Shown here piece by piece: positions 33,379-63,657 of a stretch of 64,000 nucleotides of DNA (positions are counted from its first letter, which is position 1; every line of letters begins with the position of its first letter). Below the pieces are notes generated by a model. That model had not been told where the DNA came from, searched no databases, and saw nothing but the letters and a program-made list of their open reading frames with translations. The translations under genes and the position numbers were made by a program. This DNA is from Paraburkholderia sprentiae WSM5005 (GTDB lineage Bacteria; Pseudomonadota; Gammaproteobacteria; Burkholderiales; Burkholderiaceae), in the NCBI RefSeq assembly GCF_001865575.2, contig NZ_CP017562.2, positions 1,550,001 to 1,614,000 of the forward strand, given 5' to 3'.

Positions 33379-36300
33379 TCAGCCTTGCTGGCTGTTGGAC
33401 GCCTCCAGCACCACAGCCTTGATGGCCTGGACGTGCACACCAAGCTGTTTCTTGGCGACCGCCAAGCCGTAGCTGGCTGCGTCCTCGTCGCGTTGGTGCG
33501 CGATATTGGACGGCAGATTCACGACCAGCGTGCCATCGTTGAGCAGACGCACATGCATCTCGATCAGTTCGCCATCGGCACGTGCGACCACGCCATGAAC
33601 CCAATCGCTCCCCTGCCCGGCGAGATCGGGTGTCTTGAACGCCAGATTGGCGACGCCTTCCAGTGCGATGTCGTTGCCTTGGTCGACGACTTCGAAAGTC
33701 CCCTTGTTATCGAGCTTATGGGCAGCTTCCGCGCGGTACAGGACCAACGTATTGTGCGTCGCGGGCTGTTCCTTCTCGTCGCCTAGGGCCAAACTGGTCC
33801 AGCCATTGGCTCTCACGATGGACGTATCGAGCACTGTCGTGACGGCGTTGGCATCGTTCGCCCCCTGCGGAGCACTGCCGGGCCGCGGTGCATCATAGAG
33901 CCCAGCGATCGACTGCGGCGCTCCGTCGCGCGTCGCGATGCCGTTGCCTGCTGTGTTGCTGCCGCTGCCGCTCGCATTCTGGTCGGACTTTGCCGTGCCG
34001 TTCACTCCCTGAACCGGCGCGACCGCCGCGACGGGTGAGTAATTGGCGACGATGTCCGCCTTGCCGACTTCCGCATGAGTGTCGAGCACGTAGTTGCCTG
34101 CATCGGTGCCCGCGAGCGACAACCCCGATCCAGAGACCGACTTGCTCCTACCGACGTTCTGGTCGGCGAAGCTTCCACGCCCACCGTTCACGTGGATATC
34201 GTCACCCGCGACGATGTCGCCGGCGTTCAGTACCACGTCGCTCAACTGCGCATTCGTATTGCCGTCGAAAGTCTTCCCAGCGACGGTGGCAGTTGCCGCG
34301 ATCGACTTCGGCGCGATGCTAGCCGTGGCGACCGCGCTGCTGCCGTCGAGCACATAGTTGCCCGCATCGGCACCTGTCAGCGAAAGCCCCGCGCCGAAGA
34401 CTGCCTTTTGGGCGCCGGCGTTTTTGTCGGCGAACGTTCCGGTATTGCCGGCGACGCGAAGGTCATCGCCGGACACTACGTCGCCTGCGGTCGGCTTCAC
34501 GTCGGTCAGGTGCTCTGCGGTGGTGCCGTCGTACGTCTTGTCGCCGGCGGTCGCCGTGGCCGTGACCGACTTCGGCGTGATGGCCGCAGTCGCCACCTGC
34601 GCCGACGTGTCGAGCACGTAGTTGCCTGCATCGGTGCCCGCGAGCGACAGCCCCGAGCCATCGACCGACTTGCCGGTGCCGACATTCTTCGTGTCGAAAC
34701 TGCCGGTGCTGCCCGCCGCCGACACCGTATCGCTGCCTACCAGCCCAGCGAGCGTCACGTTGCCAAGCTGAGCCGTGGTCGTGCCGTCGTACACCTTGTC
34801 GCCGGCGGTCGCCGTGGCCGTGACCGACTTCGGCGTGATGGCCGCAGTCGCCACCTGGGCGGACGTGTCAAGCACGTAGTTGCCTGCATCGGTGCCCGCG
34901 AGCGACAGCCCCGAGCCATCGACCGACTTGCCGGTGCCGACATTCTTCGTGTCGAAACTGCCGGTGCTGCCCGCCGCCGACACCGTATCGCTGCCCACCA
35001 GCCCAGCGAGTGTCACGTTGCCAAGCTGAGCCGTGGTCGTGCCGTCGTACACCTTGTCGCCGGCGGTCGCCGTGGCCGTGACCGACTTCGGCGTGATGGC
35101 CGCAGTCGCCACCTGCGCGGACGTGTCGAGCACGTAGTTGCGTGCATCGGTGCCCGCGAGCGACAGCCCCGAGCCATCGACCGACTTGCCGGTGCCGACA
35201 TTCTTCGTGTCGAAACTGCCGGTGCTGCCCGCCGCCGACACCGTATCGCTGCCCACCAGCCCAGCGAGTGTCACGTTGCCTAGCTGAGCCGTGGTCGTGC
35301 CGTCGTACACCTTGTCGCCGGCGGTCGCCGTGGCGGTAATCGACTTCGGCGTGATGGCCGCGGTCGCCACCTTGGCCGACGTGTCGAGCACGTAGTTGCC
35401 TGCATCGGTGCCCGCGAGCGACAGCCCCGAGCCATCGACCGACTTGCCGGTGCCGACATTCTTCGTGTCGAAACTGCCGGTGCTGCCCGCCGCCGACACC
35501 GTATCGCTGCCCACCAGCCCAGCGAGTGTCACGTTGCCAAGCTGAGCCGTGGTCGTGCCGTCGTACACCTTGTCGCCGGCGGTCGCCGTGGCGGTGACCG
35601 ACTTCGGCGTGATGGCGGCAGTCGCCACCTGCGCCGACGTGTCGAGCACGTAGTTGCCTGCATCGGTGCCCGCGAGCGACAGCCCCGAGCCATCGACCGA
35701 CTTGCCGGTGCCGACATTCTTCGTGTCGAAACTGCCGGTGCTGCCCGCCGCCGACACCGTATCGCTGCCCACCAGCCCAGCGAGTGTCACGTTGCCAAGC
35801 TGAGCCGTGGTCGTGCCGTCGTACACCTTGTCGCCGGCGGTCGCCGTGGCCGTGACCGACTTCGGCGTGATGGCCGCAGTCGCCACCTGCGCCGACGTGT
35901 CGAGCACGTAGTTGCCTGCATCGGTGCCCGCGAGCGACAGCCCCGAGCCATCGACCGACTTGCCGGTGCCGACATTCTTCGTGTCGAAACTGCCGGTGCT
36001 GCCCGCCGCCGACACCGTATCGCTGCCTACCAGCCCAGCGAGCGTCACGTTGCCAAGCTGAGCCGTGGTCGTGCCGTCGTACACCTTGTCGCCGGCGGTC
36101 GCCGTGGCCGTGACCGACTTCGGCGTGATGGCCGCAGTCGCCACCTGCGCCGACGTGTCGAGCACGTAGTTGCCTGCATCGGTGCCCGCGAGCGACAGCC
36201 CCGAGCCATCGACCGACTTGCCGGTGCCGACATTCTTCGTGTCGAAACTGCCGGTGCTGCCCGCCGCCGACACCGTATCGCTGCCTACCAGCCCAGCGAG

Positions 36301-39300
36301 CGTCACGTTGCCAAGCTGAGCCGTGGTCGTGCCGTCGTACACCTTGTCGCCGGCGGTCGCCGTGGCCGTGACCGACTTCGGCGTGATGGCCGCAGTCGCC
36401 ACCTGGGCGGACGTGTCAAGCACGTAGTTGCCTGCATCGGTGCCCGCGAGCGACAGCCCCGAGCCATCGACCGACTTGCCGGTGCCGACATTCTTCGTGT
36501 CGAAACTGCCGGTGCTGCCCGCCGCCGACACCGTATCGCTGCCCACCAGACCAGCGAGTGTCACGTTGCCAAGCTGAGCCGTGGTCGTGCCGTCGTACAC
36601 CTTGTCGCCAACGGTGGCCGTGGCGGTGACTGACTTCGCGGTAATGCCGGCCGTCGCGACCGCGCTGCCGTAGTCAATCGCATAGTTGCCCGCTTCAGCG
36701 CCGGTCAGCGTGAGGCCCGTGCCATAGACCGACTTGCCGCTGGCGGCGTTCCTGTCGCTGAAAACACCCGTCGTGCCGGTGACTGCGACCTTGCCGGCAT
36801 CGCCGGCGAGCACGCCTGTCACCACTTGCGGGTTGCTCAACGTGGCTGCCTTCGTGCCGTCGTAGACCTTGTTGCTGGCGGTGGCGCTGACGGTCACCGT
36901 CGCCTGGTTGATCACACCGATATCACCCTGTATCGCACCGCCCGTCGCACCGACGCCGCCGGTGCCGCCGCTCAGGTTGTAGCCGTACGCCCGGATCTGA
37001 TGGCCCGCCACGTCGTCATCGGCAGAATTGCTGTCGCCGCCGTTGGTCGCTGTGCCGATCGTCACGCCTGTGGCGCTCACCGTCTTGCCATTGGCGACCG
37101 TGACCGTGCCGGCACCGACGCTCACCGAGCCATCGGGATTCGCATTCTTGTCGCTGAACTGGGCGGACGTCAGGCCCGCCTGGCTGACCGCCACCTGCAC
37201 GTTGTCGCCGTCGATGCCGTTGCTCACGAGTTTGACGTTGCCATTGACGGTCAACGCCGAGCCCGTGGTGCCGTCCTGATACGTGACCGTTGTGTTGGTT
37301 AGCCCGGTCGTGCCATCGTAGGTCTTCGTGACCGCGCCAACGAAGGTCGCTTCCACCGTCGGCGAGATTTTGTAGACCTTGCCGTTGACCGTCGAGTTGT
37401 CGAAAGCCGTGGCGCCGGAGCCGCCCGACAGGGTCAGCAGCTGGCTGAGCGTGTGCGTGCCGTCGATCAGCCGGGTATCGGGGTGTGTATCGGACTGGGT
37501 GCCGTTCGCATAGCTGTACGTACCATCGGCCTGTGCGAAGGCGCCGTCGGCATCCAGATAGGCTGCGTTGTAGACCTTGAAGTCGTAGGTCAGCCCACCG
37601 GTCACATCCATGTCCGGCGACGTCGAATAGGTGAGCCAGCGCCCGCCTGCCGAGAACGCGTCGGAACCGCGGTCATTGACGAAATTGCCATTGGCCGACG
37701 ATGCAATGATGTCGCTGCCAGCGGCCACGGTGCCATTGCCCGTGATCGTCACGTTGCCGGTGATGTTGTCGTTGTTCGCCACTCCCGGCGTCCAGGCATG
37801 GCCGGCTGAGGGCAGCGTGCCCGCCTGGTCGATGCCGTCGCGTGCGTTCACGGCCTGCAGCACCACCGAGCCGCTACTGTTGCTCAGCGGGCCGTTCACG
37901 ACAATGTTGCCGTTGATGAGACCGAGTTCGCCGGGCACAGTGAACGTGAAGCCTGGCGTGACCGCAGCGCCCGCGCTGTTGGTGGACGATTCCACTTCCG
38001 TCGTACCGGTGCCATCGGCGCGGCCGATGATGAGACTGCGCACGCCATCGGCTTGCAGCTTCGCGAGATCGGCCTCGCTGATGAAGCTGCTACGCCCGGT
38101 CTGACCGGTGACCGTCCCATCCCGCTTGACGGTGCCATCGCCAACCATCACGCCTTGGGTGTTGTTGAGAAACAGGTTGTCGCTCGCGTTCTGGGACTTG
38201 ATCTGCAGATCGACGCTGTTCAGGCCATTGATGACCGCGCTCGAGTCGAGCGTGATCTGCGAGCCCTGCAAGCCCACGACGGACGACGTGGTGGCGTGCC
38301 CCGTCGCCTTGTCCGTCGTTGTCATCGTGACATTGCCGAGGCTGACCGATCCGGTCGTGTTCTGGATGTCGGCGCCACCCTGAATCGTATAGCCGGTCAG
38401 ATCGAGATTGGACTGCGACACGATGAGCTGGCCGCCGAGGATAACGCCACCGCTTTTGCCCCCCAGACCGGACCAGCCCATCACGTACTGGTTATAGGTG
38501 TTGTTGACGCTGCTGCCGGTAAATCCTTTGGCCTTGGCAATGTCGAGCCCCGTGTACAACTGCCCACTGCCCAGATTGGTGACGCCGGACAGGAGCGCGT
38601 ACGACGTGTCGTCCGTATAACCGAAACCCAGATACAGGTTACCGTTGTTGGTGGTCACGTTATGGCTCAGGATCACGTTCCCGACGCCGCCGCTATCCGA
38701 GTCACCAGACACCCGGATGTAACCGCCGTGCGTGGTGAGATCGCCGTTGACCGCGAGGCCATCGGCGCCTAGTAGCGTGATGCTGCCGGGCGCGGGATGA
38801 TCGGCAAGCGTGGTGTAGGCCGTGCCGAGCTGATAGTTCGTGCCGACATGCGCGGGCATGTTGGCCGGGCCAAGGTTGTACGACGGATTCGTCAGGTCGG
38901 TGTCGCTGCCCACTACAAGATTGAACACGCCATAGTTACCGGTGACAAGCTGGCCGTTGCTGTTCAGCGGTTGCCCGATCGTGCCTGTCCCAGACCCGCC
39001 CCCCTCAATGTAGATGAAGGCGTTGCCGGATACAGCCAGCGTGTTGCTGCTGTTCAAGAACTGGATCGAACTCTTCGTCGACGAAACCGACTCGACATAA
39101 ACGCTCACGCCCGGCTGCATCGTGATCATGCCGTCGCCCGTGACGTAGGCCTTCGTCAGGCCGTCGTTGGTCGGTGCCGCGTGCGTGGTAGTGGAGGCGA
39201 TCGTGCTGCCCGCGCCGTTCTTGTTCAGATCTTCGAACGTGATGTCGCCCGACGCGAGCAGCGCGACATTCGCGGTCTGCTTTTCAAGCGTGCCTTCGTA

Positions 39301-40746
39301 GATCTTCATGTCGCCGGTGCTGCTGGAGCTGTCCCAGCCGCTGGTTGCGCCGGTGCCGGGATCATCGCCGCCATAGATTTCGATGGTCGTCGGATCGAGC
39401 AGCAGGTCGCCCGTAATGCCCTTCGGAGCAAGTGCGTTGGTGAGCCCGGTGTAATGCAGCCCGCCCTTGCCCGATACTTCCGCGAGGCCGCCGTCCCCGC
39501 CGTTGGCGCCGCCGCGGATGAAAATGTTGCCGGCGAAATCGTTGTTGCCATCCGACCAGAACGTGACCGTTCCGCCATTGCCGGTGTTGGTGGCGTCGGC
39601 GTAGACGTTCACGTCCCCGCCCGTGGTGACCGAGTGAGCGTTGCCAACGCTGGCGTCTTCGCCTTTGAGACCGCCGCCGACCTTCACGGTGCCGCCGCCG
39701 GTCGCTCCGCTCGCGTTAAGCGTCGCGCCGTTGACGGCGATGTCGGTCCCCGCAACGACGATGTTGCCACCGGACCCGCTCGCGGACGAGACATCGAGCG
39801 TTCCGGAAACGGCGGTCGTACCGTTCGCGGTGTCGTTGTCGAGCACGATGCGGCCATTGCGCGACTCGAGACTCTTCGCCTCGATGACGCCGGTGTTGTT
39901 GACGACACTGCTGACGGCTGCATCTGCCGCCCGGGCGCTGAGCACCACGCTACCGCCATCGGCAGAGATCTTGCCGTCGTTACGCACGAGCGCGTTCAGC
40001 ACCCCACGGTCGACGTTGACGCTAACGAGCCCATCGCCGTCGAAATCGAGGCTGACCGCATCGCCCGCTGCCATCGCCACGCTGCCGTTCGGCGTGCTGA
40101 TCGTGCCGCTGCTGCTGACCTGCGGCCCGATCAGCGCCACCACGCCGCCTGAGGCCGTGATGTTGCCCTGGTTGATCACGGCCCCGCCTGTCGCGCCGCC
40201 GGTGAAACGTGCTTTGCCGGCGAGGAAATCATCGTCGCTGATATTGAGCGACGACGCGACGAGCCCGCCCACATTGATCTGCGCGCCTTTGCCGATCATC
40301 ACGCCGCCCGGATTGACCAGCCACACCTGGCCGTTCCCGCTCAATTTGCCGAGGATCTGGCTGGGGCCGCCGCCGCCCACGACGCGGTTCAGCGCGACGC
40401 TATCCCGGCCCGGCTGCACGAACTGGACGCTGGCATTGCTGCCGACGTCAAAGCTGCGCCAGTTCGTGACCATCCGACCGCTGGTCTGGGTGACGACCAT
40501 TTGCGTGCCCGCCTGGGCAATGTTGCCGCTGCCAGCGGTAATGGCGCCGCCGCTTGGCAGCGGTCCGCCAGCCCAGGCTGCGCTGGCGGCCGAGCCGACG
40601 GCCACGGCCAGCAAGGCGGCCGTGAGTTGCCGGCTGGCCCGGCTGCCCTTGCCGCGCGCTGATGCGTTCTCGGCTACGGCCACCCAGGCGTCCGACGATG
40701 CGCTCCAGACGAGGCGATATACGTGATTGAGTGATGCGCGTTTCAT
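33379..40746 (-). CDS. Giant filamentous-haemagglutinin-like TpsA with MBG/YDG repeats
   Basis: A 2455-residue secreted adhesin. It starts with an extended signal peptide region (MKRASLNHVYRLVWSASSDA) typical of large TPS and autotransporter proteins, followed by a hydrophobic core ending AWAGG. The TPS domain (about residues 60-320) has QTSGRMVTNWRSFDVG, ALNRVVGGGGPSQILGKLSG and VWLVNPGGVMIGKGAQ. Beta-helical sequence follows to about residue 1200. Then come divergent KVYDGT (YDG/MBG) modules, eight near-identical 86-residue modules (residues 1371-2058), two more divergent modules, and an approximately 225-residue non-repetitive C-terminus. No VENN or CdiA-type toxin tail was seen. It starts 26 bases after the TpsB stop and is co-transcribed with it. 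The likely role is surface adhesion or biofilm formation. Confidence 0.92.
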   Translation of the reverse strand: MKRASLNHVYRLVWSASSDAWVAVAENASARGKGSRASRQLTAALLAVAVGSAASAAWAGGPLPSGGAITAGSGNIAQAGTQMVVTQTSGRMVTNWRSFDVGSNASVQFVQPGRDSVALNRVVGGGGPSQILGKLSGNGQVWLVNPGGVMIGKGAQINVGGLVASSLNISDDDFLAGKARFTGGATGGAVINQGNITASGGVVALIGPQVSSSGTISTPNGSVAMAAGDAVSLDFDGDGLVSVNVDRGVLNALVRNDGKISADGGSVVLSARAADAAVSSVVNNTGVIEAKSLESRNGRIVLDNDTANGTTAVSGTLDVSSASGSGGNIVVAGTDIAVNGATLNASGATGGGTVKVGGGLKGEDASVGNAHSVTTGGDVNVYADATNTGNGGTVTFWSDGNNDFAGNIFIRGGANGGDGGLAEVSGKGGLHYTGLTNALAPKGITGDLLLDPTTIEIYGGDDPGTGATSGWDSSSSTGDMKIYEGTLEKQTANVALLASGDITFEDLNKNGAGSTIASTTTHAAPTNDGLTKAYVTGDGMITMQPGVSVYVESVSSTKSSIQFLNSSNTLAVSGNAFIYIEGGGSGTGTIGQPLNSNGQLVTGNYGVFNLVVGSDTDLTNPSYNLGPANMPAHVGTNYQLGTAYTTLADHPAPGSITLLGADGLAVNGDLTTHGGYIRVSGDSDSGGVGNVILSHNVTTNNGNLYLGFGYTDDTSYALLSGVTNLGSGQLYTGLDIAKAKGFTGSSVNNTYNQYVMGWSGLGGKSGGVILGGQLIVSQSNLDLTGYTIQGGADIQNTTGSVSLGNVTMTTTDKATGHATTSSVVGLQGSQITLDSSAVINGLNSVDLQIKSQNASDNLFLNNTQGVMVGDGTVKRDGTVTGQTGRSSFISEADLAKLQADGVRSLIIGRADGTGTTEVESSTNSAGAAVTPGFTFTVPGELGLINGNIVVNGPLSNSSGSVVLQAVNARDGIDQAGTLPSAGHAWTPGVANNDNITGNVTITGNGTVAAGSDIIASSANGNFVNDRGSDAFSAGGRWLTYSTSPDMDVTGGLTYDFKVYNAAYLDADGAFAQADGTYSYANGTQSDTHPDTRLIDGTHTLSQLLTLSGGSGATAFDNSTVNGKVYKISPTVEATFVGAVTKTYDGTTGLTNTTVTYQDGTTGSALTVNGNVKLVSNGIDGDNVQVAVSQAGLTSAQFSDKNANPDGSVSVGAGTVTVANGKTVSATGVTIGTATNGGDSNSADDDVAGHQIRAYGYNLSGGTGGVGATGGAIQGDIGVINQATVTVSATASNKVYDGTKAATLSNPQVVTGVLAGDAGKVAVTGTTGVFSDRNAASGKSVYGTGLTLTGAEAGNYAIDYGSAVATAGITAKSVTATATVGDKVYDGTTTAQLGNVTLAGLVGSDTVSAAGSTGSFDTKNVGTGKSVDGSGLSLAGTDAGNYVLDTSAQVATAAITPKSVTATATAGDKVYDGTTTAQLGNVTLAGLVGSDTVSAAGSTGSFDTKNVGTGKSVDGSGLSLAGTDAGNYVLDTSAQVATAAITPKSVTATATAGDKVYDGTTTAQLGNVTLAGLVGSDTVSAAGSTGSFDTKNVGTGKSVDGSGLSLAGTDAGNYVLDTSAQVATAAITPKSVTATATAGDKVYDGTTTAQLGNVTLAGLVGSDTVSAAGSTGSFDTKNVGTGKSVDGSGLSLAGTDAGNYVLDTSAQVATAAITPKSVTATATAGDKVYDGTTTAQLGNVTLAGLVGSDTVSAAGSTGSFDTKNVGTGKSVDGSGLSLAGTDAGNYVLDTSAKVATAAITPKSITATATAGDKVYDGTTTAQLGNVTLAGLVGSDTVSAAGSTGSFDTKNVGTGKSVDGSGLSLAGTDARNYVLDTSAQVATAAITPKSVTATATAGDKVYDGTTTAQLGNVTLAGLVGSDTVSAAGSTGSFDTKNVGTGKSVDGSGLSLAGTDAGNYVLDTSAQVATAAITPKSVTATATAGDKVYDGTTTAQLGNVTLAGLVGSDTVSAAGSTGSFDTKNVGTGKSVDGSGLSLAGTDAGNYVLDTSAQVATAAITPKSVTATATAGDKTYDGTTAEHLTDVKPTAGDVVSGDDLRVAGNTGTFADKNAGAQKAVFGAGLSLTGADAGNYVLDGSSAVATASIAPKSIAATATVAGKTFDGNTNAQLSDVVLNAGDIVAGDDIHVNGGRGSFADQNVGRSKSVSGSGLSLAGTDAGNYVLDTHAEVGKADIVANYSPVAAVAPVQGVNGTAKSDQNASGSGSNTAGNGIATRDGAPQSIAGLYDAPRPGSAPQGANDANAVTTVLDTSIVRANGWTSLALGDEKEQPATHNTLVLYRAEAAHKLDNKGTFEVVDQGNDIALEGVANLAFKTPDLAGQGSDWVHGVVARADGELIEMHVRLLNDGTLVVNLPSNIAHQRDEDAASYGLAVAKKQLGVHVQAIKAVVLEASNSQQG
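34573..36636 (-). repeat. Eight tandem 258-bp repeats inside the giant TpsA gene
   Basis: Eight direct copies of a 258-base unit fill exactly 2064 bases, in frame, coding for 86-residue modules (each with GDKVYDGTTTAQLGNV and DAGNYVLDTSA). Copies differ at only a few bases: one has DARNYV instead of DAGNYV (near 35140), one AKVATA (near 35370), one KSI for KSV (near 35340), and the first in protein order has TVGDK. Diverged copies flank the array on both sides. Confidence 0.97.
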
Positions 40747-46656: not shown

Positions 46657-47348
46657 AGCCGCGCCGTTCTTTCTTCCGCACCTCGCCTTTCAAGCCAATG
46701 CCACAATCGCAAGCATCTCTGATCGTTCATCCTCTCGTCGTTCGCTTGACGCATTGGACCAACGCGTTCGCGATGGTCTGCATGGTGATGAGCGGCTGGG
46801 CGATCTATAACGCGTCGCCGATCTTTCCGTTCCGGTTTCCCGCATGGGCGACGCTCGGCGGGTGGCTCGGCGGCTCGATCGCATGGCACTTCGCGGCGAT
46901 GTGGCTGCTGTGCGCGAACGCTCTGCTGTATCTGGCGTATGGCGTGGCGAGCGGCCATTTGCATCGCAAGCTGCTGCCGGTGCGTCCCGGCGACGTGGCG
47001 CGCGATGCGGCGCTCGCGTTGCGCTTCAGGCTGCCGCATCAGCCGGGCCGATACAACGCCGTGCAGCGCGCGCTGTATCTGTTGGTGTTGCTGCTCGGCG
47101 TGCTGCTGGTGGCGTCGGGACTGTCGATCTGGAAGCCGGTGCAATTCTGCTGGCTGAGCGCGCTGTTCGGCGGCTTCGATTTCGCCCGGCGCGTGCACTT
47201 CGTCGCGATGGCCGGCGTGGTCGGCTTCCTCGTCGTGCATCTGCTGCTGGTGCTGCTGGTGCCGCGCACGTTGCCACCGATGTTCACCGGACGCGCGCGG
47301 CCGAGCGCGCCTCGCATCGATCAAGCATCCGAGAGGACTCGCGCATGA
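46653..47348 (+). CDS. Cytochrome b561-type membrane protein
   Basis: A 231-residue four-helix dihaem cytochrome b of the b561/Ni-hydrogenase b-subunit family. Candidate haem ligands are the histidines in VVRLTHWTNAFAMVCMVMSG, AWHFAAMWLL, RRVHFVAMAGVVGFLVVHLLLVL and the last helix. The GTG start at 46653 overlaps the upstream stop; an ATG at 46698 (MPQSQ) is an alternative that is closer to the first helix. The next gene overlaps it by ATGA. It would anchor and exchange electrons with the periplasmic molybdoenzyme encoded next. Confidence 0.85.
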   Translation: MKPRRSFFRTSPFKPMPQSQASLIVHPLVVRLTHWTNAFAMVCMVMSGWAIYNASPIFPFRFPAWATLGGWLGGSIAWHFAAMWLLCANALLYLAYGVASGHLHRKLLPVRPGDVARDAALALRFRLPHQPGRYNAVQRALYLLVLLLGVLLVASGLSIWKPVQFCWLSALFGGFDFARRVHFVAMAGVVGFLVVHLLLVLLVPRTLPPMFTGRARPSAPRIDQASERTRA

Positions 47349-48151
47349 GCGCCCCGCAATCAAACGATACGGCGCACGATACGCCCATCAGTGCAGAAGA
47401 CGCGGGCCGCTCCCGCATCGTGCTGGCGGAGCACCGGCCGCGGATCGAACAGTTGCAACGCCGTTTATTCCTGCGCTCGTCGCTATCGATCGGCGCGCTC
47501 GCGATGCTGTCCGGCTGCAACCTGCAGGACAACGATTCCGTCGACAAGGTGCTATGGGCGATGTCGCGCTGGAACGATCGCGTGCAGGCGTGGCTGTTCG
47601 ATCGTAACAAGCTCGCGCCGACCTATTCGGCGCGCGATATCACCGATCCATTTCCGTTCAACTCGTTCTATGCCGAGTTCGATGCGCCCGACGTCGACGG
47701 TTCGGCCTATCGGCTCGAGGTATCCGGGCTCGTCGCGGACAAACGCAGCTGGAGCCTCGAACAGTTGCGCGCGTTGCCACAGGTCTCGCAGATCACGCGT
47801 CACGTGTGCATCGAAGGATGGAGCGCGATCGGACAATGGAGCGGCGTGCCGTTTCGCACGTTCCTCGAACGGATCGGCGCCGATCTGAGCGCGCGCTACG
47901 TAGGCTTCAAATGCGCGGACCGCTACTACTCGAGCCTCGACATGGCGACCGCGCTGCATCCGCAAACGCAATTGACGCTCGATTTCCGCAACGCGCCGCT
48001 GCCGGCCAAATACGGGTATCCGCTGAAGCTGCGCGTACCGACCAAGCTCGGCTTCAAGAACCCGAAGCATATTGCCGCGATCTTCGTGACGAACACGAAT
48101 CCGGGCGGCTACTGGGAAGATCAGGGCTACAACTGGTTCAGCGGGCTTTAG
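47345..48151 (+). CDS. Molybdopterin-dependent oxidoreductase, sulfite-oxidase/YedY fold
   Basis: A 268-residue exported molybdoenzyme. Twin arginines at residues 39-40 (RRLFLRSS) start a Tat signal that ends in a lipobox-like MLSGC at residue 58, so it may be a membrane-anchored lipoprotein. The catalytic molybdenum ligand is Cys155 in TRHVCIEGWSAIGQWSG, and RVPTKLGFKNPKHI matches the cofactor-binding loop. The start overlaps the cytochrome b stop (ATGA). Together they form an enzyme-plus-haem pair like MsrPQ, though the cytochrome is of a different family. Its stop codon overlaps the convergent AraC gene stop by three bases. Confidence 0.9.
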   Translation: MSAPQSNDTAHDTPISAEDAGRSRIVLAEHRPRIEQLQRRLFLRSSLSIGALAMLSGCNLQDNDSVDKVLWAMSRWNDRVQAWLFDRNKLAPTYSARDITDPFPFNSFYAEFDAPDVDGSAYRLEVSGLVADKRSWSLEQLRALPQVSQITRHVCIEGWSAIGQWSGVPFRTFLERIGADLSARYVGFKCADRYYSSLDMATALHPQTQLTLDFRNAPLPAKYGYPLKLRVPTKLGFKNPKHIAAIFVTNTNPGGYWEDQGYNWFSGL

Positions 48152-58452: not shown

Positions 58453-58707
58453 ATGCTCCACCTGATCGCCACGTCGGACCAACTCGCGCAGCTGCTGGCG
58501 GCCAGCCGCCGCCAGGCCGGCCTCACGCAGATCGAGGCGGCCGCGCGCGTCGGCGTGAGCCAAAGCCGCATTTCCGCGCTCGAGACCGACGCGAGCGGGC
58601 TCACGATCACACAGCTGCTGGCTTTGTGCGGCGCCTACGGCCTGCAACTGCAGTTGCGCGACAAAAATCAGCCGGGCGCATTGCCGGCGCCGAACGTGGA
58701 GTGGTGA
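58453..58707 (+). CDS. hipB: HipB-type antitoxin, XRE-family HTH
   Basis: An 84-residue DNA-binding antitoxin. The helix-turn-helix is RRQAGLTQIEAAARVGVSQSRISALE (read in parts) at about residues 16-45, with a short C-terminal tail ending PAPNVEW, the tryptophan-ended tail known in HipB proteins. It neutralises HipA and represses the operon. Its stop is one base before the hipA start. The palindromes over the promoter are its likely operators. Confidence 0.9.
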   Translation: MLHLIATSDQLAQLLAASRRQAGLTQIEAAARVGVSQSRISALETDASGLTITQLLALCGAYGLQLQLRDKNQPGALPAPNVEW

Positions 58708-58708
58708 G

Positions 58709-60049
58709 ATGGCCCGGCAAACCGCTTCGAAGGCCTTGTCGGTGTGGGCCAACGGCGAGCGCGTCGGGCTCTGGCGGCTGCCCGCCCGCGGCCCGATGGA
58801 ATTTTCCTACGACGCCGCGTGGATCGCGTCGGCCGCGGGACGTCCGCTGTCGCTGTCGCTGCCGTTCACGCCCGGCAACATGACGCATAAAGGACCGCGG
58901 GTGCTGAACTACTTCGACAACCTGCTGCCTGACAGCGACGTCATCCGCAAACGCATCGCGCAGCGCTACCGGACCGAAACGCTCGAAGCGTTCGACCTGC
59001 TGCAGGCAATCGGCCGCGACTGCGTCGGCGCGGTCCAACTGCTCGCCGAAGACGACGCGCCGGCCGGGGTCCAGCGGATCGAAGGCACGCCGCTGTCCGA
59101 CGACGAAATCGAGGCGCTGCTCGCGCAAACGGTCGGCAAACCGCCGCTCGGCGCGCCCGACGAGGCCGACGGCTTCCGCATCTCGCTCGCCGGCGCGCAG
59201 GAGAAAACCGCGCTGCTGTGGCACCACGGGCGATGGCAGCGGCCGCTCGGCGCGACGCCGACCACGCACATCTTCAAGCTGCCGCTCGGGCTGGTTGGCA
59301 ACCGGCTCGCCGATCTCAGCACCTCGGTCGAAAACGAGTGGCTGTGTCTGCGGATTCTGCGCGCGTTCGGCCTGCCCGTCGCGAACGCCGAGGTGCTCAG
59401 GTTCGGCAAGCAGCGCGTGCTCGCCGTCGAACGCTTCGACCGGCAGATGCATTCGAGCGGCACATGGCTGCTGCGTCTGCCGCAGGAAGATTTCTGCCAG
59501 GTGTACGGCGTGCCGTCGCATCGCAAGTACGAAAACGAGGGCGGCCCCGGCGTGCTCGACCTTGCGCGGGTTCTCCAGCAATCGGTCGACGCGCGGCAGG
59601 ACATCGAGACCCTGCTCGCGAGCCAGATCCTGTTCTGGATGCTGGCCGCGCCGGACGGCCACGCGAAGAACTTCAGCATCCGCCTGCTCGCGGGTGGCCA
59701 GTACCGTCTGACGCCGCTCTACGACGTGATGTCGATCTGGCCGGTCGAAGGCAATGGCCCGAACCAGTGGTCCTGGTACAAGGCGCGGCTTGCGATGGGT
59801 CTGTGGTCGCGCAGCAAGCACGATGCGTTTCGCGACGTGCAGCGGCGTCACTTCAACGCGATGGCGTTGAAGTGCTCATATGGCGCCGACGCCGAGCCGC
59901 TGATCCAGCGCCTGATCGAACAGACGCCCGGTGTGATCGAGCGGGTCTCGGCGGAGTTGCCCGAGCGCTTTCCGGGCAAGGTCGCCGAGCGGATTTTCAA
60001 AGGACTTCACAATTCGGCGGCCCGGCTCGACACGATGCCGGCAAGCTGA
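58709..60049 (+). CDS. hipA: HipA-type toxin, serine/threonine kinase
   Basis: A 446-residue HipA kinase; the Escherichia coli homologue phosphorylates glutamyl-tRNA synthetase and causes persistence. Landmarks are the N-subdomain (LSVWANGERVGLWRL), the autophosphorylation-type Ser159 in RISLAGAQEKTALL with the ATP-loop motif GAQEK at 162-166, the catalytic Asp316 and Asn321 in APDGHAKNFS, and the metal-binding Asp339 in PLYDVMS. All catalytic residues are present, so the toxin is probably active. It overlaps nothing downstream; 322 bases follow before the next gene. Confidence 0.93.
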   Translation: MARQTASKALSVWANGERVGLWRLPARGPMEFSYDAAWIASAAGRPLSLSLPFTPGNMTHKGPRVLNYFDNLLPDSDVIRKRIAQRYRTETLEAFDLLQAIGRDCVGAVQLLAEDDAPAGVQRIEGTPLSDDEIEALLAQTVGKPPLGAPDEADGFRISLAGAQEKTALLWHHGRWQRPLGATPTTHIFKLPLGLVGNRLADLSTSVENEWLCLRILRAFGLPVANAEVLRFGKQRVLAVERFDRQMHSSGTWLLRLPQEDFCQVYGVPSHRKYENEGGPGVLDLARVLQQSVDARQDIETLLASQILFWMLAAPDGHAKNFSIRLLAGGQYRLTPLYDVMSIWPVEGNGPNQWSWYKARLAMGLWSRSKHDAFRDVQRRHFNAMALKCSYGADAEPLIQRLIEQTPGVIERVSAELPERFPGKVAERIFKGLHNSAARLDTMPAS

Positions 60050-60371: not shown

Positions 60372-61226
60372 ATGGCGAACGAAACACACTCACCCGACTC
60401 CCTCGCGGTTGCCGAGCGCGTGCGCGAGTTGATGAGCCGGCACGGAATCGGCAAGCGCCAGCAAACCACCGAGCTATGCCGCATCCTCGATCTGAGTTTT
60501 TCTCAGGGGCACCGCAAACTGCGCGGCAACAGTCCGTGGACTCTGTCGCAGATCAAGAAAGTCGCCGAGGTATTCGACGAACCTGCGGCGCAGCTGTTCG
60601 GCGCGCAGTCGCTCGATCCGGGCGTCGTCGGCGCGATCGCCCAGGAGGCGGTGTTCTGCGTCGGCGCGACCGAAATCGCCTGCACCGCATGGGTCGGCGC
60701 CGCGCTCGAACCGGGTAGCCGTCCGGAGTTCGTCGCGTATTCGCGGCTCGGTCAATGGCGCGTCGCGCGTCATGATGGCGCGCTGTATCAGAGCGCGTAC
60801 GAAGTCCACAAGATCGAGATCTATCCGCGCCGCGCCGAAACCGACAAGCCCGCCATCGCGGTGGTCGACGACGATCGCGCAAGCGCCGACAACCTGCGCG
60901 ACTATCTGGAGCGTAGCGGCTTCACGGCGGTCGCGATCTATGGCCTCGCGGCCTTCAGCGAACAGTTGCAGACGCAGGTGTTCGACGGCGTCATCATCGA
61001 TTGGCTGTTCGGCGCGCAGACCGCGGCGGCCGCGATTCGCGCGGTGCGCGCGTCGGAGAATCCGGACGCACCGATCTTCGTGCTGACCGGCGAGCTGCTG
61101 ACCGGCAAGGCCAGCGAATCCGAGATCAGCGAGGTGATCCGCGATTACGACGTCGCGTGCTACGAGAAGCCCGCGCGCATGGCGATTCTGGTCGCCGATC
61201 TGTCGAAGCGGCTGAATCGGCCTTGA
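60372..61226 (+). CDS. BetR-type DNA-binding protein with C-terminal receiver domain
   Basis: A 284-residue regulator with inverted domain order. The N-terminal helix-turn-helix region is of BetR type (residues 12-75; VAERVRELMSRHGIGKRQQTTELCRILDLSFSQ, read in parts, then RKLRGNSPWTLSQIKKVAEVF). A middle segment follows (about 80-155), then a receiver domain from residue 160 with acidic residues 166-168, phosphorylatable Asp210 (GVIIDWLF), Thr239 and Lys266 (CYEKPAR). All phosphorylation residues are present. It converges with a hybrid histidine kinase, which is the obvious candidate partner. The palindrome at 60158 may be its site. Confidence 0.85.
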   Translation: MANETHSPDSLAVAERVRELMSRHGIGKRQQTTELCRILDLSFSQGHRKLRGNSPWTLSQIKKVAEVFDEPAAQLFGAQSLDPGVVGAIAQEAVFCVGATEIACTAWVGAALEPGSRPEFVAYSRLGQWRVARHDGALYQSAYEVHKIEIYPRRAETDKPAIAVVDDDRASADNLRDYLERSGFTAVAIYGLAAFSEQLQTQVFDGVIIDWLFGAQTAAAAIRAVRASENPDAPIFVLTGELLTGKASESEISEVIRDYDVACYEKPARMAILVADLSKRLNRP

Positions 61227-61273
61227 ACCGCGGCGCCGATGCGCCCTGTGTGCGGCGCTACGCCCTCACGCCT

Positions 61274-63118
61274 TCACGCCTGATGCGCGGCCAGCGCCCG
61301 CTGCAGCGCATGCTTCAGATCCTCGTAATGGACTGGCTTTAACAGCGCCTCGAACACCGACGGCGCGCCAGTCGCGCCATGGGCACCATTGCGCGCGACC
61401 TCCGGCGCGTACGCGCTGACCACGATCACCGGCACGCCCGCCGACGGTCCGCCGCGCGTCGCGAAGTCTTCGAGAAACGTGTAGCCGTCGCGCTCCGGCA
61501 TGTGCAGATCGAGCAGCACCACTTCGCAGCGGTGTGTATCGAGCCACGCGAGCGCGTCGTCGGCATTGCCGAGTGCCAGCGAGTCGTAGCCCATGTGCGC
61601 GATCATTTCGCTGAGCGACTCGCGGATCAGTCGGTTATCGTCGATGATCAGCACGCACGGCCGCGCGCTGCCCGGCTCGGCTTGCGCCGCGACGTCGGCC
61701 GGTTCGACGGTCGCGACCGGCGCGACCGGAATCGTCACCGTGAACGTGGTGCCCTCCCCGACCGTGCTCGCGACATCGACGGTGCCGCCAAACAGCTTCA
61801 CCAGCCCCTGCACGATCGCGAGCCCCATGCCCGCGCCTTCGAAGCGGCGCGCGCGCGACGCGTCGAGCTGCGTGAACTCCTCGAAGATCAGCGGGATCTG
61901 CGCAGACGGCACGCCCGGCCCGGTATCGCTGACGACGAAAACCAGCAGCGCCGGCTGCTGCCGCAATTCGACGCGCACCGTGCCGGTCTCGGTGTAGCGG
62001 ATCGCGTTGGTGACGAGGTTGTTGACGATCTGCCGGATGCGGTGCGGGTCCGACTCGACGAGCCCGCTCACGCCGCTCGCCTCGCTTTCGAGCTTGAGCC
62101 CGCGCACTCCGGCGAACCCCGTGTGTTCATCGACGATCGATGCCAGCAGTTCGCGCGGCTCGAAATGCTGGTGCCGCAGTTCGAGCTTGCCGGCGCCCAG
62201 GCGCGCGTAATCGGTCAGATCCTTCATTTGCGCTTCGAGATGGCGCGCCGCGGTTTCGAGCCGCTGAATCACCTTGCGGTCGGCCTCCGAGTGATAGTTG
62301 AAGCCGAGCAGTTCGACCGACGACACGATCGCATGCAACGGCGTGCGCAGCTCGTGGCTGATCATGCCGAGAAACGCGTCCTTCGCGAGGCTCGCCTCGC
62401 GCGCCGCGCGGCTCGCCTGATGCTCGGCTTCCAGCGCCGCGCGTTGCTGACGCATGAGCCGCGTGCGGCGTCGGCCGTTAAGCACCAATAGCAGCGTCGC
62501 TGCGGCCGACAGCAACAGCAGCAACAGACCGCCCGCGAACAGCATGCGGCGCTTGTCGATGAAGTCGCGGTTCATCGCCTCGCGATCGGCGACATCGGCG
62601 AAGCGGCGCGACAGCGCGAGATCGTTGACCTCGCTCCAGTGCTGGCGCAGCTGCGCGTCGATCCGCACGGCACGGGCACGCTCGCGCGGCAGTACGTCGA
62701 GCTCGGGCTGGATGTCGTCGAGCACATTCTCGAGCGCGTTGATTTCGTCGAGCTGCCGCTGCAGTAAAGCGAGCCGCGACGCGAGCCGCTGCGTCGAGCC
62801 GGCCATGACGCGCAGCTTCGATTGCAGCAGCTGGAAGCGCAGCAGCAGCCGCTGATAGTCGTCGTCGGCACCGGACTCGTACAGCAGCAGCTGGTTCTCG
62901 AAGCGCGCGTACGCAATCTGCAGTTGCGCGGCGTCCCAGTAAAAACCGTCGTAGGTGCCGGTCAACTGCTCGGTCGCGCGCGGATTCAACAGGTTCGCAT
63001 ACAGGAGATAGCCGATCGCGCCGACGGGCGCCGCGAGCGCCGTTAGCCAGATCAGCACGTACAACACGCGCCGCCACGGACGGCGCGCTATTTGACGATG
63101 AGGGCCTTGATCTGCCAT
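61274..63118 (-). CDS. Hybrid sensor histidine kinase with C-terminal receiver
   Basis: A 614-residue membrane kinase. Transmembrane helices lie at about 18-42 and 193-213, with a helical periplasmic region of 150 residues between. The HisKA has His255 (GMISHELRTPLHAIVSSVELL, in parts), and the HATPase has NNLVTNAIRYT near 366, VSDTGPGV and GAGMGLAIVQGLVKLFGG. A receiver at 488-605 has Asp537 (VVLLDLHMPERDG) and Lys594 (LLKPVHYEDL). The start overlaps the end of the gene for the exported sulfite-oxidase-fold protein by 31 bases, so translation is coupled. The convergent gene at 60372 encodes a likely output regulator. Confidence 0.92.
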   Translation of the reverse strand: MADQGPHRQIARRPWRRVLYVLIWLTALAAPVGAIGYLLYANLLNPRATEQLTGTYDGFYWDAAQLQIAYARFENQLLLYESGADDDYQRLLLRFQLLQSKLRVMAGSTQRLASRLALLQRQLDEINALENVLDDIQPELDVLPRERARAVRIDAQLRQHWSEVNDLALSRRFADVADREAMNRDFIDKRRMLFAGGLLLLLLSAAATLLLVLNGRRRTRLMRQQRAALEAEHQASRAAREASLAKDAFLGMISHELRTPLHAIVSSVELLGFNYHSEADRKVIQRLETAARHLEAQMKDLTDYARLGAGKLELRHQHFEPRELLASIVDEHTGFAGVRGLKLESEASGVSGLVESDPHRIRQIVNNLVTNAIRYTETGTVRVELRQQPALLVFVVSDTGPGVPSAQIPLIFEEFTQLDASRARRFEGAGMGLAIVQGLVKLFGGTVDVASTVGEGTTFTVTIPVAPVATVEPADVAAQAEPGSARPCVLIIDDNRLIRESLSEMIAHMGYDSLALGNADDALAWLDTHRCEVVLLDLHMPERDGYTFLEDFATRGGPSAGVPVIVVSAYAPEVARNGAHGATGAPSVFEALLKPVHYEDLKHALQRALAAHQA

Positions 63119-63657
63119 ATGAATTTCGAGTCGCCGACCGCGCCAGTCAGTTCATCCGGAAAAGCGTCGCGCGGGTAGATCAGGAACAGCGGCCCGAAGT
63201 CGCTAAGTTTCAGGCGCTGGCCGTTCATGCTGTACGCGACGATTACGCCGTAGCGTTCGCAGTCCGTTACCGGCACGCTGTAGGTGTAGTCGTCGAACGT
63301 GCGGAACTCGATTTCCGTGCCGTGCGCGCCGACAGCCTTCAGGATGTCGGCGAGCCGAGGGCCGGTGAACGTCGAGCGTGGCGTCCAGGTGGTCGAGGTC
63401 GTGATCGTATGCGCGGGCAGCGCGAGCAGTTGGGCCTCGCTAAAGTGATAAGTGCGATGCGCGGCGTCGTTGGTGTTGGCGATCTTGCCCTCTACGTCGA
63501 GCGATAGCGCCGGCAACGGCCGTGCGCTCGGCTGCGCGTACGCGCAACAGACGGCCAACCCGACGACCAGCCCAGCCAGCAGCGTCAGCCGGCGCCTCGG
63601 CCAGGGCACACCAGTTCCGCCGCTCGCATTGCGCGGCGTTGCAATCACGTTGGCCAT
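63088..63657 (-). CDS. Exported sulfite-oxidase-fold protein lacking the Mo-ligand cysteine
   Basis: A 189-residue protein with a signal peptide (LTLLAGLVVGLAVCCAYAQ). The rest matches the molybdopterin oxidoreductase (SUOX) fold: LSLDVEGKIANTN, FSEAQLLALPAHTI, FTGPRLADILKAVGA and PLFLIYPRD. Aligned without gaps to the YedY-like protein at 47345, its I85-T86-T87 faces H-V-C of the latter, so threonine replaces the molybdenum-ligand cysteine. It is therefore probably not an enzyme. The gene overlaps the hybrid kinase gene by 31 bases. A periplasmic sensing or ligand-presenting subunit for that kinase is inferred. Confidence 0.8.
   Translation of the reverse strand: MANVIATPRNASGGTGVPWPRRRLTLLAGLVVGLAVCCAYAQPSARPLPALSLDVEGKIANTNDAAHRTYHFSEAQLLALPAHTITTSTTWTPRSTFTGPRLADILKAVGAHGTEIEFRTFDDYTYSVPVTDCERYGVIVAYSMNGQRLKLSDFGPLFLIYPRDAFPDELTGAVGDSKFIWQIKALIVK

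What the first reader, a model, noticed from the sequence alone, without database searches (positions are those of the whole stretch)
60372..63657. Putative signalling module built on a dead molybdoenzyme fold
Seen: an exported SUOX-fold protein (63088-63657) overlaps the gene of a hybrid histidine kinase by 31 bases, and a BetR-type receiver protein gene converges on it. In a gap-free 26-residue alignment to the true YedY-like enzyme in this same window, the Mo-ligand cysteine is a threonine (T87). Known: SUOX-family enzymes bind Mo through that cysteine. Inference: the protein lost catalysis and serves as a periplasmic sensor or ligand domain for the kinase, which passes phosphate to the BetR-type regulator. 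I know of no described system of this composition.
Basis: partly seen in the sequence, partly recalled or inferred. Interest (0 to 1): 0.72.

Follow-up and report, generated by a model that had tools for sequence, protein, structure and literature searches.

The report
Pterin-receptor two-component system (PruR–kinase–BetR)
A soil bacterium carries a known kind of three-gene switch, in which an exported relative of a molybdenum enzyme has probably become a pterin receptor that talks to a sensor kinase and a DNA-binding regulator; relatives of the switch sit beside the transfer genes of conjugative plasmids.

Summary
In detail: an exported SUOX-fold gene (63088-63657 -) overlaps a hybrid-kinase gene by 31 bases, a BetR-receiver gene converges on the kinase, and the Mo-ligand cysteine is Thr87. 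The claim of an undescribed composition is wrong. The protein matches solved PruR pterin-binding proteins (E 1e-20), which lack this cysteine and pair with DcpA-type receptors or TorS/BaeS-like kinases. The same three-gene convergent layout was published as AirMSR in Chromobacterium, and a like-composed Reg1-Reg2-BetR system in Serratia; both reports leave the signal unknown.

New here: (1) these literatures appear to describe one kind of system, so that signal is probably a pterin; (2) BetR lies within 6 kb of 96 of 99 PruR genes found in 299 family genomes, in two gene orders, and the proteins co-diverge; (3) these kinases keep the Trp of WX7E but not the Glu (0 of 156 family rows); (4) some modules hold a fourth gene: a pteridine-reductase-type SDR, a GT9-like protein or a GNAT; (5) 18 of 22 plasmid modules I picked lie beside transfer genes. 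Main counter-evidence: several genomes lost PruR but keep kinase and BetR. No binding was tested.

The parts
63088..63657 (-). pruR-type gene: exported 189-aa SUOX-fold pterin-binding-like protein (AirM/Reg1-like)
   Evidence: PF00174 38.8 bits; PDB 7kos/7rkb 'Pterin Binding Protein', E about 1e-20
63397..63399 (-). codon of Thr87, at the place of the Mo-ligand cysteine
   Evidence: no Cys in columns 83-91 of 292 sequences; Thr in 276
63286..63288 (-). codon of Tyr124, equivalent of A. tumefaciens PruR Tyr104
   Evidence: alignment; Tyr in 288 of 292; role of Tyr104 from review passages
63115..63117 (-). codon of Trp181, equivalent of A. tumefaciens PruR Trp160 (pterin contact); lies inside the overlap with the kinase gene
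   Evidence: alignment; Trp in 287 of 292
63088..63118 (-). 31-base overlap of pruR 3' end and kinase 5' end
61274..63118 (-). hybrid histidine kinase, 614 aa: helical periplasmic region about residues 43-192, HisKA, HATPase, receiver
   Evidence: best NCBIfam model TorS, 238.8 bits, below its cut-off of 676.5
62936..62938 (-). codon of Trp61 of the kinase = Trp of the WX7E motif
   Evidence: Trp in 153 of 156 family rows and 18 of 18 outside rows
62912..62914 (-). codon of Ala69 of the kinase, where WX7E has Glu
   Evidence: acidic in 0 of 156 family rows, in 18 of 18 outside rows
62354..62356 (-). codon of His255, phospho-acceptor histidine
   Evidence: invariant; His in 18 of 18 plasmid kinases
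61508..61510 (-). codon of Asp537, phospho-acceptor of the kinase's own receiver
   Evidence: invariant
60372..61226 (+). betR-type response regulator, 284 aa: BetR DNA-binding domain, then receiver
60999..61001 (+). codon of Asp210, phospho-acceptor of the BetR receiver
   Evidence: invariant; Asp in 18 of 18 plasmid BetR

Best explanation
A pterin-sensing two-component system of the PruR / AirMSR kind. Step 1 (inferred from PruR): a small, probably reduced pterin binds in the periplasm to the SUOX-fold protein, which cannot hold Mo because the ligand cysteine is Thr. Step 2 (inferred): PruR, with or without pterin, docks on the helical periplasmic region of the kinase around Trp61 and shifts its kinase/phosphatase balance. 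Step 3 (residues shown, transfer inferred): His255 passes phosphate, directly or through Asp537, to Asp210 of the BetR protein. Step 4 (inferred): BetR changes transcription. In Serratia and Chromobacterium, systems of this composition steer secretion, secondary metabolites, motility, adhesion and siderophores.
For: Homology to solved pterin-binding PruR; PruR lacks the cysteine and binds reduced pterins (review). No Cys in columns 83-91 of 292 sequences; Thr87 276, Tyr124 288, Trp181 287 of 292. Kinase adjacent in 29 of 29 fetched same-genus loci. BetR within 6 kb of 96 of 99 PruR matches, in convergent and co-directional orders. Divergent second modules in the same genome keep the set (L039, L085, L086, L087). 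Pairwise distances correlate over 32 representatives: PruR-kinase 0.82, PruR-BetR 0.84, kinase-BetR 0.91, 0 of 2000 permutations as high. A TGX3RXG pteridine-reductase-type SDR lies between kinase and BetR in 8 loci of 5 genus codes. airM was required together with airS in Chromobacterium.
Against: PruR is gone while kinase and BetR stay in several genomes, e.g. L036-L038, L088-L091, L096, L097, so PruR is not always needed. The kinase lacks the Glu of WX7E. The window module has no pteridine reductase gene in it; the nearest candidate in the genome is on another contig (43% identity). No pterin binding, complex or phosphotransfer was tested. Outside the family 0 of 20 PruR loci have a BetR above 150 bits.
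Confidence: 0.66

Rival explanations
1. The SUOX-fold protein is a redox sensor or residual oxidoreductase; the kinase reads an oxidative change through it (the idea offered for AirM).
For: Fold family of oxidoreductases; the Air authors suggest an oxidative signal; PruR ligands are redox-active.
Against: Mo-ligand cysteine absent in 292 of 292; the PruR pocket is reported as too small for Moco.
Confidence: 0.1
2. Same circuit, but the ligand of this branch is not a pterin: the pocket was re-used once more for another small molecule.
For: Kinase motif differs from WX7E; fourth genes of three unrelated families occur; position 122 is Asp in 269 and Asn in 22 of 292, a position the review links to possible specificity changes.
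Against: Pterin-contact Trp and Tyr kept; a pteridine-reductase-type SDR is built into some modules.
Confidence: 0.17
3. Kinase and BetR form the working system and sense something by themselves; PruR is an optional accessory.
For: Kinase and BetR are kept without PruR in several lineages.
Against: 96 of 99 PruR genes are beside BetR; airS without airM failed to restore the response in Chromobacterium.
Confidence: 0.12
4. BetR is a neighbour by chance and not the output of the kinase.
For: BetR occurs alone in some genomes (L092-L095, L107, L109).
Against: Two gene orders, chromosomes and plasmids, co-divergence r 0.91 with the kinase.
Confidence: 0.03

Closest known systems
AirM-AirS-AirR, Chromobacterium violaceum / subtsugae ATCC 31532 (PMC7240160, passages; PMC11019928, passages)
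   Same: Signal-peptide OxMoco protein and hybrid kinase in one operon, convergent with a BetR-receiver regulator; the authors note similar systems in Burkholderia spp.
   Different: Sequence orthology not tested here. Known phenotype is a response to translation inhibitors; not seen in ATCC 12472. The passages and word searches showed no pterin or PruR link
Reg1-Reg2-BetR (EepS-EepR), Serratia marcescens (PMC7618870, abstract and passages)
   Same: Possible periplasmic sensing protein, transmembrane kinase, BetR-family regulator as one unit
   Different: Chromosomal Serratia sequences were not reached, so Reg1 = PruR is inferred; signal reported as unknown; 'pterin' and 'molybd' do not occur in the text
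PruR-DTB systems (review PMC13259868, sections 5, 7, 8 and passages)
   Same: PruR gene directly before a kinase with a DcpA-like periplasmic region, TorS-like kinase core
   Different: WX7E acid missing; BetR output gene; the review names no response regulator and no Burkholderiaceae case of this kind in the words searched
PruA-PruR-DcpA, Agrobacterium tumefaciens (same review)
   Same: PruR receptor, periplasmic regulator domain; a pteridine reductase makes the ligand
   Different: Output is c-di-GMP turnover, not a two-component phosphorelay
TorT-TorS (recalled, no call)
   Same: A periplasmic binding protein docking on a TorS-type hybrid kinase
   Different: Unrelated binding-protein fold and ligand

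Membership tests
PruR pterin-binding proteins | SUOX-type fold, about 170 aa | tested here: met
   PF00174 above cut-off; PDB PruR matches E 1e-20; 189 aa with leader. No structure model was made
PruR pterin-binding proteins | N-terminal secretion signal | tested here: inconclusive
   Twin-basic/hydrophobic leader ending in AYAQ read by eye only
PruR pterin-binding proteins | Mo-ligand cysteine absent | tested here: met
   Thr87; 0 of 292 with Cys in columns 83-91
PruR pterin-binding proteins | pterin-contact Trp160 and Tyr104 (At numbering) | tested here: met
   Trp181 and Tyr124 in the window; 287 and 288 of 292
PruR pterin-binding proteins | binds a reduced pterin | not testable with these tools
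   needs purified protein
DTB-type kinases (PruR-DTB) | directly downstream of pruR | tested here: met
   31-base overlap
DTB-type kinases (PruR-DTB) | periplasmic region with WX7E (reported for the vast majority) | tested here: not met
   Trp61 kept, residue +8 is Ala69; acid in 0 of 156 family rows, 18 of 18 outside rows. So DTB-like, a branch without the Glu
DTB-type kinases (PruR-DTB) | TorS/BaeS-like kinase core, receiver optional | tested here: met
   best NCBIfam model TorS, below its equivalog cut-off
AirMSR / Reg1-Reg2-BetR kind | OxMoco protein + kinase operon plus BetR-receiver regulator; convergent in Air | tested here: met
   against the published description
AirMSR / Reg1-Reg2-BetR kind | sequence orthology to the named genes | not tested
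   those chromosomes were not reached
AirMSR / Reg1-Reg2-BetR kind | response to translation inhibitors; control of lifestyle genes | not testable with these tools
   needs mutants
SUOX-family Mo enzymes | Mo-ligating cysteine | tested here: not met

The most novel reading that the evidence does not exclude
BetR-coupled PruR systems are pterin-based signalling modules that conjugative plasmids have taken up, several times, as switches of their transfer genes. The fourth gene in these modules (pteridine-reductase-type SDR, GT9-like protein or GNAT, one per module in what I saw) would make or tailor the element's own pterin signal; PruR is the receptor and BetR the output, a kind of pterin quorum or mate sensing. 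The chromosomal module of the window is the older form without the fourth gene, reading the cell's own pterin pool. If translation inhibitors raise GTP, the pterin precursor (inference), this would also explain how the membrane kinase AirS notices stalled ribosomes.
Probability: 0.28. Interest if true: 0.88.

Novelty: new member of a known kind. Interest (0 to 1): 0.6.

Why it matters
Two experimentally studied regulators of bacterial competition and lifestyle (AirSR, Reg2-BetR) are reported with unknown signals. Identifying their periplasmic partner as a PruR-type protein gives a named ligand class and single residues to test. It also joins pterin signalling, so far shown for c-di-GMP, to a transcriptional two-component output. 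The plasmid modules suggest that pterins could bear on conjugation in Enterobacterales and Burkholderiales, which would be new if true.

Tried and rejected
Rejected: active Mo enzyme (no cysteine). Rejected: chance neighbours. Promoter/operator footprint upstream of betR over 80 sequences: no convincing palindrome by eye; dropped. BetR in a class-wide sample (229 genomes) and in the order of G698 (295 genomes): apart from the window's own gene only receiver-level matches below 50 bits, so chromosomal Serratia was not reached or not detected; in the family of G414 1 of 43 matched, at 64.5 bits. Protein searches did not bring Chromobacterium or Serratia proteins. Primary PruR paper: the identifier I tried, from memory, is not held, so PruR facts rest on the review. 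The last two plasmid-literature searches found 0 papers; that some claims are not in print rests on ten searches and word searches within four papers, open-access library only. Rows dropped before counts: 6 PruR matches of 65-70 bits (not counted in 99); L080 left out of the module table because its BetR is cut by the contig end; four plasmid loci (L269, L270, L272, L276) were not in the tables but are.
Full report
What is there. One search gives the three genes at the stated coordinates: betR-type regulator 60372-61226 +, hybrid kinase 61274-63118 -, exported SUOX-fold protein 63088-63657 -. The last two overlap by 31 bases; betR and kinase converge with a 47-bp gap. Domains: PF00174; HisKA, HATPase_c, Response_reg; BetR and Response_reg. 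The kinase's best NCBIfam model is TorS, below that model's cut-off.

What the small protein is. Sequence search of solved structures gives 7kos, 7rkb (E about 1e-20), 7kom (3e-17) and 7kp2 (2e-12), named pterin-binding or Oxidored_molyb-domain proteins. The review PMC13259868 (abstract, sections 5, 7, 8 and passages) calls 7KOS A. tumefaciens PruR and 7KP2 V. cholerae PruR. PruR is periplasmic, lacks the Mo cysteine, prefers tetrahydromonapterin, and pairs with DcpA (c-di-GMP) or with DTB kinases. In 292 sequences (duplicates and low-scoring paralogues kept) there is no Cys in columns 83-91; Thr87 276, Tyr124 288, Trp181 287; column 122, At Asn102, is Asp in 269 and Asn in 22. The direct comparison with the window's own Mo enzyme (46844-48151 +) is weak (E 0.12); the family alignment carries the argument.

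How conserved the set is. Same genus: PruR in 32 of 35 genomes, own included; BetR in 35 of 35 at 74% identity or more; kinase beside PruR in 29 of 29 fetched loci. One of these, G008, has two stop codons in its PruR match. Of 99 PruR matches above 100 bits, 96 have BetR within 6 kb: 67 by coordinates, 29 from fetched loci. The exceptions are G235:C3 (no kinase either) and two matches on short or cut contigs; the two PruR genes of G252:C31 share one BetR. Named genomes (Paraburkholderia, Burkholderia sp. and one Trinickia record): 75 of 80 BetR loci hold PruR, kinase and BetR, 4 BetR and kinase, 1 BetR only. The second gene order, co-directional BetR-PruR-kinase, is seen in genus codes g36 and g40; a g40 protein is identical to Robbsia andropogonis and its neighbours are mostly Burkholderia. 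Outside the family, 20 fetched PruR loci: kinase above 150 bits in 16, BetR above 150 bits in 0, one weak BetR-like ORF (67 bits, L217).

Co-divergence. From 155 modules, 32 representatives at 15% BetR distance give r = 0.82 (PruR-kinase), 0.84 (PruR-BetR) and 0.91 (kinase-BetR); none of 2000 permutations was as high. Several genomes add a second, distant module (L039, L085, L086, L087), so this is not only the species tree; shared ancestry still inflates the test.

A branch of its own. In DTB and DcpA proteins the periplasmic region carries WX7E. In 156 rows from family loci, window included and not dereplicated, Trp is kept in 153 and the +8 residue is Ala 128, Val 22, Asn 4, Ser 2, never acidic; in 18 rows from outside the family it is Glu 15, Asp 3. 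Among 18 plasmid kinases Trp aligns in 11 and an acid in 1.

Against a strict need for PruR. L036, L037 and L038 keep kinase (61-63% identity) and BetR, but no PruR frame is left beside the kinase. The same holds for L088-L091, L096, L097 and L041. Orphan BetR genes also occur (L092-L095, L107, L109).

A fourth gene. Between kinase and BetR, 8 loci of five genus codes carry an SDR with the TGX3RXG motif (L073, L075, L079, L080, L081, L083, L114; L082). The four that I scanned score best with PRK09134 and next with PRK09135 pteridine reductase, both below cut-off; a FolM structure is the second PDB match of one of them. The review gives TGX3RXG as the mark of pteridine reductases. Other modules carry a GT9-like protein (PF01075 between no match and 23 bits, cut-off 22) or a GNAT; the tested fourth genes fall into three clusters of 14, 4 and 3. 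The window module has none; its genome has a TGX3RXG SDR elsewhere (43% identity to L075's).

Plasmids. tblastn in PLSDB finds BetR in 467 records (384 conjugative) and PruR in 620, mostly Klebsiella. I fetched 24 regions, chosen from the best and spread lists, not at random. 22 hold BetR, PruR and kinase, one BetR only (L274), one PruR only (L277). Of the 22, 18 match transfer-protein queries in the stretch (L273 by its relaxase alone); L256, L265, L266 and L267 do not. Fourth gene: GT9-like 15, GNAT 3, SDR 1, none 3. The transfer systems include MPF_T, MPF_F and MPF_I; in L260 and L261 the module lies between TraY and TraM genes, in L262 between transfer genes and the TraI/MobA relaxase. Over the 155 module loci, fourth gene with transfer genes 17, fourth gene only 8, transfer genes only 1, neither 129; Fisher p 9e-16, not corrected for kinship. 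In E. coli the Typhi-plasmid form is in 66 of 5426 genomes, all 68 places on plasmids.

Known systems. AirMSR (PMC7240160; abstract and passages) has the window's composition and convergence, needs airM, and was already noted in Burkholderia spp. Reg1-Reg2-BetR (PMC7618870; abstract and passages) has the same composition. PMC11019928 (passages) did not see the Air violacein phenotype in ATCC 12472. None of the words pterin (first, second and fourth paper) or BetR (review) turned up where I searched for them. The identity AirM = Reg1 = PruR is my inference; I could not fetch those chromosomes.

Verdict. A real, ordinary member of a known kind, wrongly thought undescribed. Its worth is the bridge: a testable ligand for two systems with unknown signals, a branch without the WX7E acid, and plasmid modules with a possible signal-tailoring gene.

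Noticed in passing
L255, L257-L264, L268-L273, L275, L276, L278 (plasmid loci): BetR-PruR-kinase modules beside transfer genes of plasmids with unrelated transfer systems; a fourth gene in most.
   Followed up: partly
L073, L075, L079-L083, L114: Pteridine-reductase-type SDR (TGX3RXG) between the kinase and betR genes.
   Followed up: partly
L036-L038, L041, L088-L091, L096, L097: Kinase and BetR kept although PruR is absent.
   Followed up: partly
L092-L095, L107, L109: Orphan BetR-receiver genes without a linked kinase.
   Followed up: no
L049-L052, L055: About 200-aa PF00174 proteins with 28-38% identity to the window protein and no kinase beside them.
   Followed up: no
L084 (G235:C3): A clear PruR gene (180 bits) beside a different kinase/regulator pair and no BetR.
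   Followed up: no
window 58453-60049 +: HTH gene and HipA-type gene (HipA_C, Couple_hipA) just upstream of betR, a HipBA-like pair.
   Followed up: no
window 46844-48151 +: True SUOX-family enzyme with the Mo cysteine (Cys322 in VCIEGW).
   Followed up: partly
window 33379-40746 -: 2455-aa open frame, not examined.
   Followed up: no
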